Below are positions 5,089-58,957 of a stretch of 64,000 nt of DNA, piece by piece. A program made the position numbers and the translations under genes. The notes beneath the pieces were generated by a model. That model was not told the origin of the DNA and did no database searches. It saw only the letters and a list, made by a program, of their open reading frames with translations. Every line of letters begins with the position of its first letter. The first letter of the stretch is position 1. The stretch is from Rhodothermales bacterium (GTDB taxonomy: Bacteria > Bacteroidota > Rhodothermia > Rhodothermales > VXPQ01), in the NCBI GenBank assembly GCA_951812335.1, contig OX638293.1:2184731-2248730 (forward strand), given 5' to 3'.

Positions 5089-5195
5089 CCGGATCGTACG
5101 AGGTTCAAGGGTGATTTGGCATCGTTCTCTCGCTATCTGCTAGAGGCAGGGCAACAAGGTCGAATCAATGCGTAGGGCCGGCACATTCTGCTAAG

Positions 5196-5449
5196 GGATA
5201 CTCTGATTAAATCCGCAAAGCTCAGATGCTGAGAGGGGTGCGCTGGCAAGAAATGACGAAGCAGTGTGGCAGGCCCCACATAATGAGGAATGACGCGGCC
5301 AGCGTGCCCCTCTCAGCATCCCGAAGGGCGCTTCACGCCCGCGACGCTCCGAATCCGCAATGCTTCCCCTTAACTCCAACGATGGAATCATGATGTCTTG
5401 TACTTGCAAACGTGAAGCGCTGAGCGAAGTGGTTTTGATCAGAGTATCC
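5196..5449 (+). repeat. GGATACTCTGAT-type interspersed element, full-length copy (254 bp)
   Basis: Begins GGATACTCTGATTAAATCC and ends GTTTTGATCAGAGTATCC, giving imperfect terminal inverted repeats of about 20 bp. Inside are two further inverted pairs: GTGCGCTGGC against GCCAGCGTGC, and CGCTTCACG against CGTGAAGCG. The copy at 50805-51058 has the same length and order. Short ORFs here are read differently in each copy and look non-coding. The right end lies 8 bp before the predicted 5' end of the RNase P RNA. Together with this element, the 369 bp between the coiled-coil gene and rnpB contain no gene. Confidence 0.9.
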
Positions 5450-5457
5450 CGAAAATA

Positions 5458-5864
5458 TTCCTGCCGGATCGCCGCTCCGGTCCGTGAGATCGGGGAGGAA
5501 AGTCCGAACACCAAAGGGCGCCGTGCTTCCTAACGGGAAGGCGCCGCTGACGCGGCGACAGCAAGTGCAACAGAAAGCAAACCTGCCGATGGCGCTCCGG
5601 CGCACAGGCGATGGGTGAAACGGTGGAGTAAGAGCCCACCAGCGTCCCGCGAAATCGGGGCGGCTATGTAAACCTCACGGGGTGCAAGACCAAACAGCGC
5701 CGCATCGTTCTTCGAGAACGGACAAGGTAGCCCGCCTTGGGAAACGGCGCGGGTAGGTCGCTCGAGGCCGTCGGCGACGACGGTCCCAGATAAATGGCGA
5801 TCTCGCCGCAAGCGGTGCAGTGGCTGCTGCTGCGGTCAGACAGAATTCGGCTTACAGGCAGGAA
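5458..5864 (+). ncRNA. rnpB: RNase P RNA, bacterial type A
   Basis: Conserved blocks appear in order: GAGGAAAGTCCGAACACC near the 5' end, AGAAAGCAAACC, GGTGAAACGGTGGAGTAAG, GCAAGACCAAACAG, GGGTAGGTCGCTCGAGG and, at the 3' end, GACAGAATTCGGCTTACAGG. The ends are set by an 8-bp P1 helix (TTCCTGCC with GGCAGGAA). It is the catalytic subunit of RNase P, which removes 5' leaders from pre-tRNAs. The upstream repeat element ends only 8 bp before P1, so the promoter must lie within or upstream of that element unless a longer precursor is made. Confidence 0.95.
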
Positions 5865-5884
5865 GTGCCGCGATATAGATGTGC

Positions 5885-9968: not shown

Positions 9969-10045
9969 CTGCCACACTACTTCGTCATTGCTTGCCGGCG
10001 CACCCCTCTCGGCCCCTGGGCTTTGCAGACTTAATCAGAGTATCC
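9969..10045 (-). repeat. GGATACTCTGAT-type element, left half only, inverted
   Basis: On the minus strand this matches the first 75-80 bp of the 254-bp element: terminal GGATACTCTGATTAAGTC, then GAGAGGGGTGCGCCGGCAAG and ATGACGAAG-AGTGTGGCAG. The right half is missing. The outer end lies one base before the ATG of the next gene. Confidence 0.85.
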
Positions 10046-10739: not shown

Positions 10740-10754
10740 GGATACTCTGATTAC
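10740..10754 (+). repeat. Solo end of the GGATACTCTGAT element
   Basis: A 14-15-bp GGATACTCTGATTA end without the rest of the element. It sits in the 41-bp gap between two converging genes, 2 bp beyond the stop codon of the minus-strand membrane-protein gene. Confidence 0.7.
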
Positions 10755-31581: not shown

Positions 31582-31608
31582 AGAATACTCTGGGATACTC
31601 TGATTAAT
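31582..31608 (+). repeat. Solo end of the GGATACTCTGAT element, partly duplicated
   Basis: GGATACTCTGATTAATT (31593 on) is preceded directly by a truncated tandem copy, GAATACTCTG. No internal part of the element is present. It sits in the 221-bp gap upstream of the small membrane protein; the rest of that gap has no recognisable feature. Confidence 0.7.
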
Positions 31609-45660: not shown

Positions 45661-45675
45661 TTGATCAGAGCATCC
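45661..45675 (-). repeat. Degenerate right end of the GGATACTCTGAT element
   Basis: TTGATCAGAGCATCC, one mismatch to the right end TTGATCAGAGTATCC, preceded by a decayed GTGAAGTGCCACCG that resembles the internal part next to it. It lies 4 bp beyond the phoU stop codon, in the gap between phoU and the PorV-like gene. Confidence 0.5.
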
Positions 45676-49122: not shown

Positions 49123-49477
49123 GGATGCTCTGATTAAGTCCGCAAAGATTCAGAGGCCGACAGGCGCTTCACGACCGCGACGACCCGAAGCCGCCGTGTT
49201 TTTCGCTAAGGATACTCTGATTAAGTCCGCAAAGCTCAGAGGCTGAGAAAAGTGCGCTGGCAAGAAATGACGAAGCAGTGTGGCAGGCCCCACATAATGA
49301 GGAATGACGCGGCCAGCGTGCTTTTCGTAGTCTCCCGAAGGGCGCTTCACGCACGAACGTGAAGTGCTGAGCGAAGCGGTTTTGATCAGAGTATCCTTAA
49401 ATTTCGACGACGCCATCATATCGTTCTGTACGCGTGAACGTGAAGCGCTGATCGAAGTGGACTTGATCGAAGCATCC
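49123..49477 (+). repeat. Older GGATACTCTGAT-type element, interrupted by a second copy
   Basis: Outer element: its left part (49123-49209, beginning GGATGCTCTGATTAAGTCC) and right part (49397-49477, ending TTGATCGAAGCATCC) together match the 254-bp element with substitutions and an internal deletion. It is split by the second copy at 49210-49396. Both ends carry a T-to-C change (GGATGC/GCATCC), consistent with an older copy. The pair fills almost the whole pstS-pstC gap. Confidence 0.8.
49210..49396 (+). repeat. GGATACTCTGAT-type element, 187-bp deletion derivative (nested copy)
   Basis: Same ends and left half as the 254-bp copies (GGATACTCTGATTAAGTCC ... GTTTTGATCAGAGTATCC) but about 67 bp are missing between the internal CGCTTCACG and CGTGAAG inverted arms. 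It lies inside an older copy. The flanks read CGCTAA before and TTAAATT after the insertion, which would allow a TA target duplication. Confidence 0.88.
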
Positions 49478-50735: not shown

Positions 50736-50804
50736 TTTGCCTGATCTTGACAATAAGCCGGGACAGGCGGCATCGCCCTCGCCCCCCCGGGCCAAAGCAC
50801 TACA

Positions 50805-51058
50805 GGATACTCTGATTAAGTCCGCGAAGTTCAGAGGCTGAGAGGGGTGCGCCGGCAAGAAATGACGAAGCAGTGTGGCAGGCCCCGCACAATGAGGAAT
50901 GACGCGGCCAGCGCACCCCCCGCAGCTTCCCGAAGGGCGCTTCACGACCGCACTGCCCCTGATCCGCAGCGTTTCCCGCTAATGTCAACGATGCCATTAT
51001 GATATCCTTTACGCACGAATGTGAAGCGCCGGGCGAAGCGGTTTTGATCAGAGTATCC
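50805..51058 (+). repeat. GGATACTCTGAT-type element, full-length copy (254 bp) with extended terminal inverted repeat
   Basis: Same length and internal order as the copy at 5196. The flanking bases add a further perfect inverted repeat: GCACTAC directly outside the left end and GTAGTGC outside the right end, so here the terminal repeat runs from 50797 to 51066. Internal inverted pairs GTGCGCCGGC/GCCAGCGCAC and CGCTTCACG/TGTGAAGCG are visible. Together with the PHO-like box this fills the gene-free stretch of about 530 bp before the MCE gene. Confidence 0.9.
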
Positions 51059-51171
51059 TGTAGTGCATGGGATCCGCCGCATTTGAACGGAACGGGATAT
51101 GCCGCCTCCCGTTCCATCCGCACAAGGCGGAAAACAGACACGCTGCCCCTCCGGACCATGCCGCAAACATC

Positions 51172-53972: not shown

Positions 53973-54059
53973 GGATACTCTGACCAAAACCGCTTCGTCA
54001 TTCCTTACCAGCGCACCCCTCGCGAACCTCTGGGCTTTGCGGACTTAATCAGAGTATCC
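53973..54059 (-). repeat. GGATACTCTGAT-type element, 87-bp internally deleted copy
   Basis: Both ends are intact (GGATACTCTGACCAAAACCGC and its partner CGGACTTAATCAGAGTATCC) but only about 45 bp of interior remain, in reverse orientation. The flanks are TA on both sides (TTTA before AGGATAC, TTAC after GTATCCT), consistent with a TA target duplication. Fills the uvrC-spmA gap. Confidence 0.85.
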
Positions 54060-58730: not shown

Positions 58731-58861
58731 GCGCCCCTCGCAGCCTCCCGAAGGGCGCGTCACGTCCGCAACGCCCGAAACCTCAGTGTTCCCGCTGATT
58801 TCAACGATGGAATCATGATATCCGTGAAGCGCTGATCGAAGCGGTTCTGGTCAGAATATCC
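58731..58861 (+). repeat. GGATACTCTGAT-type element, right half only
   Basis: Contains CTCCCGAAGGGCGCGTCACG, the CAACGATGGAATCATGAT block seen in the 5196 copy, CGTGAAGCGCTGATCGAAGCGG and a decayed end GGTCAGAATATCC. The left half is replaced by the IS3 remnant, which suggests that the IS or a deletion removed it. Confidence 0.85.
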
Positions 58862-58944: not shown

Positions 58945-58957
58945 GGATACTCTGACC
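58945..58957 (+). repeat. Solo end of the GGATACTCTGAT element abutting the dnaE start codon
   Basis: TACAGGATACTCTGACC directly precedes the ATG of dnaE. The GGTCA/TGACC variant is the right-end version of the terminus. No Shine-Dalgarno sequence is visible between it and the ATG, so translation initiation would depend on the repeat-derived leader. Confidence 0.75.

What the first reader, a model, noticed from the sequence alone, without database searches (positions are those of the whole stretch)
5196..5449. A 254-bp MITE-like repeat family with GGATACTCTGAT ends, at least 11 sites in 64 kb
Two copies (5196-5449 and 50805-51058) have exactly the same length of 254 bp, imperfect terminal inverted repeats of about 20 bp and two nested internal inverted pairs. 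Further sites are deletion derivatives (187 bp and 87 bp), an interrupted older copy, halves (9969, 58731) and bare ends (10740, 31593, 45661, 58945). All lie between genes. No ORF is conserved between copies, so the family appears non-autonomous and possibly structured as RNA. I know of no named family with these ends.
Basis: partly seen in the sequence, partly recalled or inferred. Interest (0 to 1): 0.8.

Follow-up and report, generated by a model that had tools for sequence, protein, structure and literature searches.

The report
Mobile DNA repeat with structured core
This is a short, gene-free jumping element, present in well over a hundred copies in one uncultivated Rhodothermales bacterium and shared with its sister species, moved by the transposase of an IS5-type insertion sequence; its one unusual feature is an inner hairpin that hardly changes although the rest of the element varies freely.

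Summary
The 254-bp element has at least 138 copies in the 2.69-Mb genome (127 with both ends), about 77 strong ones in a sister species, and occurs in all 5 other genomes of the genus searched but in none of 54 genomes of other families of the order. It makes 4-bp target duplications (TTAA most often). Orthologous empty sites exist in sister species, including for the copy at 5196-5449. Decayed IS5-group transposase genes next to identical GGATACTCTGAT ends, one with both ends, survive in a sister genome; IS5-group elements with similar ends occur in another Rhodothermales family. It is therefore a MITE mobilised by an IS5-group transposase that is now missing from this genome. Only the ends are shared with the IS. 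The interior folds into a forked hairpin (z = -7.7) with compensatory changes and a nearly invariant internal loop (two GGAATGAC repeats that can face each other with tandem G.A mismatches). Variants shared between copies are tenfold rarer in that loop; private variants are not. This suggests that the core matters for spreading rather than for resident copies. Its role is not shown.

The parts
5196..5449 (+). full 254-bp MITE copy, immediately upstream of the RNase P RNA gene (5456-5870)
   Evidence: empty orthologous site in G003 and G005, copy at the same place in G004
5196..5216 (+). left terminal inverted repeat
   Evidence: pairs 1-21/234-254, about 99% of cells paired in 106 copies
5429..5449 (-). 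right terminal inverted repeat
5220..5327 (+). hairpin core (consensus positions 25-132) modelled as R1
5248..5262 (+). 5' side of the near-invariant internal loop (AAGRAATGACGAAGC)
5282..5294 (+). 3' side of the near-invariant internal loop (AATGAGGAATGAC)
50805..51058 (+). second full 254-bp copy; its flanks form a 16-bp palindrome (GCACTACA/TGTAGTGC), no clear target duplication
49123..49209 (+). left part of an older, shortened copy interrupted by the next one
49210..49396 (+). 187-bp derivative inserted into the older copy (flanks CTAA / TTAA)
49397..49477 (+). right part of the interrupted older copy
53973..54059 (-). 87-bp derivative with both ends
9969..10045 (-). left half of a copy
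58731..58861 (+). right half of a copy
10740..10753 (+). isolated end
31593..31607 (+). isolated end
45661..45675 (-). isolated end, one mismatch
58945..58956 (+). possible isolated end, one mismatch (could be chance)

Best explanation
The repeats are copies of a non-autonomous transposable element (MITE) moved in trans by an IS5-group DDE transposase that recognises GGATACTCTGATYAA ends and cuts a 4-bp, A+T-rich target. Shown: the ends, the 4-bp duplications, empty orthologous sites, transposase genes next to the same ends in a sister species, and no such transposase in this genome. Inferred: the transposase was lost here after the latest burst, or is supplied by an IS not detected. The element is not a simple deletion derivative of the IS, because only about 16-20 bp at each end are shared; it is more likely a strongly self-complementary sequence captured between two IS ends. 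The inner hairpin with its invariant loop most likely acts in cis when the element spreads (binding of transposase or a host factor to it, or a folded transcript that protects the element or insulates its neighbours), because the constraint shows in variants inherited by many copies and not in private, post-insertion variants. That last step is an inference of moderate strength (about 0.4); the MITE/IS5 part is close to certain, and the confidence below refers to it.
For: 4-bp duplications: 32 of 116 copies exact at 4 bp against 5 at 3 bp and 1 at 5 bp; own genome 33 of 113 against 4 and 1, TTAA commonest. Empty sites, the cleanest GTGTCC-TAAA-[element]-TAAA-AAGC against GTGTCCTAAAAAGC, and at rnpB in G003 and G005. 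Transposase: PF01609 hits in G004, all near ATCAGAGTATCC, one with both ends, 666 bp; NF033581 IS5 family, E 1e-41 and 4e-39. IS5-group relatives in family f15, one with 72% protein identity and an intact 328-aa ORF; a 1169-bp one with CTAA/CTAA duplication and GGATAGTCTGATTAAG / GGAAGGTCTGATCAATCC ends. None in own genome. Restricted to one genus. Structure: z -7.66; 85 double-changed cells against 21.8 shuffled and 0-8 slid; apical stem 99.6% paired with several pair types. Source-level constraint: loop 1.3% shared-variant cells against 13% elsewhere, private 0.68% against 0.92%.
Against: No intact autonomous partner with exactly these ends was found. Many copies lack a perfect target duplication. 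Insertion polymorphism shows past movement, not present activity. For the fold: G.U- and A.C-type single changes in the main stem are about equally frequent, so no RNA strand is favoured; no Rfam family matches; the pairs inside the invariant loop never vary and so cannot be tested by covariation.
Confidence: 0.93

Rival explanations
1. The repeats are host regulatory RNAs or terminators that were multiplied by the host and kept between genes for a function, not transposable elements.
For: Intergenic placement, strong fold, copies at shared sites much more alike than their flanks.
Against: Target duplications, empty orthologous sites, a nested insertion and transposase genes with the same ends; only 19 of 121 full copies have a counterpart at the same place among the 62 full copies of a sister genome; private variants are spread almost evenly over the element.
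Confidence: 0.05
2. The invariant internal loop is kept as a pair of protein-binding sites on double-stranded DNA (direct repeat GGAATGAC) for transposase or a host factor, and the hairpin is incidental.
For: GGAATGAC occurs twice, at consensus 55-62 and 92-99, both nearly invariant; the constraint acts at the level of spread.
Against: Compensatory changes in the apical stem between the two repeats and in the outer stem call for a paired form; the two repeats are placed so that the mismatches between them are all tandem G.A.
Confidence: 0.3
3. The compensatory changes come from template switching between the two arms of the inverted repeats during replication, with no selection on the fold.
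For: Long near-perfect inverted repeats are known substrates for such correction (general knowledge); equal G.U and A.C rates in the main stem.
Against: It does not explain why the mismatched internal loop, which such correction would turn into a perfect stem, stays mismatched and nearly invariant.
Confidence: 0.15

Closest known systems
IS5 family, IS5 group (NCBIfam NF033581)
   Same: Transposase genes with the same or similar ends and 4-bp target duplications
   Different: The element has no transposase and shares only its ends with the IS copies
RUP of Streptococcus pneumoniae (MITE of IS630-Spn1; reviewed in PMC2229807)
   Same: About a hundred intergenic, gene-free copies with ends like those of an IS
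   Different: 107 bp, TA target, IS630 family
Correia/NEMIS elements of Neisseria (reviewed in PMC2229807)
   Same: Intergenic MITE whose transcripts form long stem-loops
   Different: Other ends, length and host; NEMIS RNA was proposed to be cut by RNase III, nothing comparable was tested here
IS5-related MITEs of Porphyromonas gingivalis, BrickBuilt and others (PMC4596501)
   Same: Ends matching IS5-family elements
   Different: Different ends, BrickBuilt carries a minisatellite and has 19 copies
CIR repeats of Caulobacter/Brucella (reviewed in PMC2229807)
   Same: Two hairpin arms and a highly conserved short motif inside
   Different: No terminal inverted repeats, the motif is GANTC

Membership tests
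MITE (non-autonomous DNA transposon) | short, no transposase gene | tested here: met
   254 bp, no long ORF in consensus
MITE (non-autonomous DNA transposon) | terminal inverted repeats | tested here: met
   20 of 21 end positions paired
MITE (non-autonomous DNA transposon) | fixed-length target duplication | tested here: met
   4 bp
MITE (non-autonomous DNA transposon) | insertion polymorphism with empty orthologous sites | tested here: met
MITE (non-autonomous DNA transposon) | high copy number | tested here: met
   138 cores in own genome, about 77 strong hits in G004
MITE (non-autonomous DNA transposon) | movement by the related transposase | not testable with these tools
   needs a mobility assay
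Non-autonomous member of the IS5 group | ends identical to those of an IS5-group transposase gene | tested here: met
   L120 both ends, L114 and L117 right end
Non-autonomous member of the IS5 group | 4-bp target duplication as in IS5-group relatives | tested here: met
   L134 CTAA/CTAA, element 4 bp; that IS5 itself prefers YTAR is from memory
Internal-deletion derivative of an IS5-group element | interior sequence shared with the IS | tested here: not met
   only about 16-20 bp at each end are alike, by inspection of the sequences
Rfam RNA family | match above a gathering score | tested here: not met
   none at 5180-5455

The most novel reading that the evidence does not exclude
The inner hairpin with two facing GGAATGAC repeats (three tandem G.A mismatches) is a required structural signal of a DNA transposon: folded RNA or folded single-stranded DNA that decides whether a copy spreads, a layer of cis control not described for IS5-group MITEs.
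Probability: 0.25. Interest if true: 0.75.

Novelty: new member of a known kind. Interest (0 to 1): 0.42.

Why it matters
The element makes up about 1.2% of this genome (127 copies of about 254 bp in 2.69 Mb). With 138 copies at different sites, changes made before spreading can be told from changes made after insertion, so it becomes directly testable whether the inner fold of a bacterial MITE, often drawn but rarely tested, is needed for movement.

Tried and rejected
IS427-like IS (TAGGGCGTGTTAACAC ends; the only DDE_Tnp_1 of the own genome) as partner: rejected, other ends; it merely sits inside a copy of the element. IS701-type DDE_5 transposase: none in six genomes. Palindromic target without duplication, suggested by the first flanks: rejected, the 4-bp direct repeat explains most of them, many 4-bp targets being palindromes. 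Known Rfam RNA: none. Viral carriers of the transposase: no relative. RNA-strand bias by G.U against A.C counts: inconclusive. Orientation towards neighbouring genes: 44 against and 24 with the flanking genes in same-direction gaps, weak. Literature on these ends: only unrelated papers; no paper on MITEs of Rhodothermales found.

Full report
Observation. The two 254-bp copies, the shortened copies, halves and bare ends are as described. The end motif is far above chance in the window (17 sites against 3.1) and occurs 260 times exactly in the genome against none for the reversed control. The family is in all five other genomes of the genus and in none of 54 genomes of other families of the order; the core model finds it in no other genus among 394 genomes of the phylum.

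Anatomy. A consensus of 106 copies is 254 bp long. Positions 1-21 pair with 234-254; within them lie a long hairpin (30-52/103-125, with an apical stem 69-74/81-86) and a weaker second arm (133-143/215-225, with a variable distal part 144-214). The window copy folds at -119.5 kcal/mol, z = -7.66.

Transposition. Direct repeats at the two ends peak at 4 bp in a set of 116 copies from several genomes and again in the own genome's 113 complete copies. Five copies have an orthologous empty site in a sister species, the cleanest with exactly one copy of the TAAA target, and the copy of the finding itself has an empty site in G003 and G005, where CATTCTCCGAAATATTCC runs unbroken into the RNase P RNA gene. 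A 187-bp copy is nested in an older copy in the window; a subtype of that kind with 91-96% identity over its left part is repeated in G003.

Partner. The own genome has one DDE_Tnp_1 gene, an IS427-like IS inserted into a copy of the element (the IS427 label is from memory of such ends). In G004 three decayed DDE_Tnp_1 genes lie next to ATCAGAGTATCC; one, L120, is a 666-bp internally deleted element with both GGATACTCTGAT ends. The fragments match NF033581, IS5 family. In another family of the order, IS5-group elements of about 0.9-1.4 kb carry ends of the form GGAnnnTCTGAT, one with a CTAA/CTAA duplication, one with an intact 328-aa transposase 72% identical to the G004 fragment. Beyond 16-20 bp the ends of the IS and of the MITE differ, so the interior was not made by a simple deletion (inspection).

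The interior. Counted on 82 distinct cores, 96.7% of cells form standard pairs; 85 cells have both sides changed against 21.8 in shuffles and 0-8 in slid versions; the apical stem is 99.6% paired and three of its six pairs carry changes on both sides. The loop between the two stems (53-67, 87-99) is almost invariant. By inspection GGAATGAC (55-62) faces GGAATGAC (92-99) with Watson-Crick pairs interrupted only by tandem G.A mismatches, and GA (63-64) faces GA (90-91) likewise; the pairs there never vary and so are not tested by covariation. Facing GGAAT-type repeats with G.A pairs are stable in DNA as well as RNA (from memory), so the sequence does not tell which is meant.

Where the constraint acts. 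In the 138 copies of the own genome, variants seen in one or two copies are spread almost evenly (0.68% of cells in the loop, 0.92% elsewhere), while variants shared by three or more copies are tenfold rarer in the loop (1.3% against 13%) and also rare in CCGAAGG 126-132 (1.05%); the distal part has 18%. As the copies lie at different sites, shared variants were mostly there before insertion. The reading that the core is needed for spreading, not by resident copies, is an inference; it assumes that shared variants are inherited rather than recurrent.

Placement. With a home-made gene finder, 111 of 127 copies lie outside genes, while 78% of control positions lie inside. Insertion bias and removal of harmful insertions are not separated.

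A puzzle. Between G000 and G004, 15 pairs of complete copies at the same site differ by 0-7 bases. Three have nearly identical flanks (recent exchange). In the other 12 the element differs at 0.85% of sites while flanks differ at 5-9%, and orthologues are as a rule closer to each other than to any other copy. Differences are not clearly concentrated in the variable part. Pairs with fewer differences tend to have longer identical flanking runs, which favours recent exchange over short tracts; selection on resident copies is the alternative. This was not resolved, and if selection is the answer it would weaken the reading that resident copies are free to change.

Verdict. A real, abundant, genus-specific MITE family of the IS5 group, not found named anywhere, of a known kind. 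The structured and constrained interior is its only feature worth more than routine annotation.

Noticed in passing
window 5196-5455: The copy ends 6 bp before the RNase P RNA model starts; G004 has a (differing) copy at the same place, G003 and G005 none. The upstream region of rnpB has thus been split by the element.
   Followed up: partly
G000/G004 shared sites, e.g. L219 1277-1529 / L097 6980-7232; L248 1277-1529 / L112 2215-2467: Copies at the same site in two species are 97-100% alike although flanks differ by 5-9%; short-tract exchange or selection.
   Followed up: partly
L113 1444-2300: IS5-family IS with TAGGGCGTGTTAACAC ends inserted in a copy of the element; the transposase reads in two overlapping frames.
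   Followed up: no
G066 loci L131-L151: A genome of another Rhodothermales family with two dozen mostly decayed IS5-group transposase matches, several next to GGAAACTCTGAT-type ends.
   Followed up: no
window 50797-51066: The second full copy sits in the middle of a perfect 16-bp palindrome GCACTACA/TGTAGTGC.
   Followed up: no
L002, L031, L032 (site tattttacccat): Three species carry a copy at nearly the same site; the one in G005 has another junction and is only 92% alike, suggesting repeated insertion at favoured spots.
   Followed up: partly
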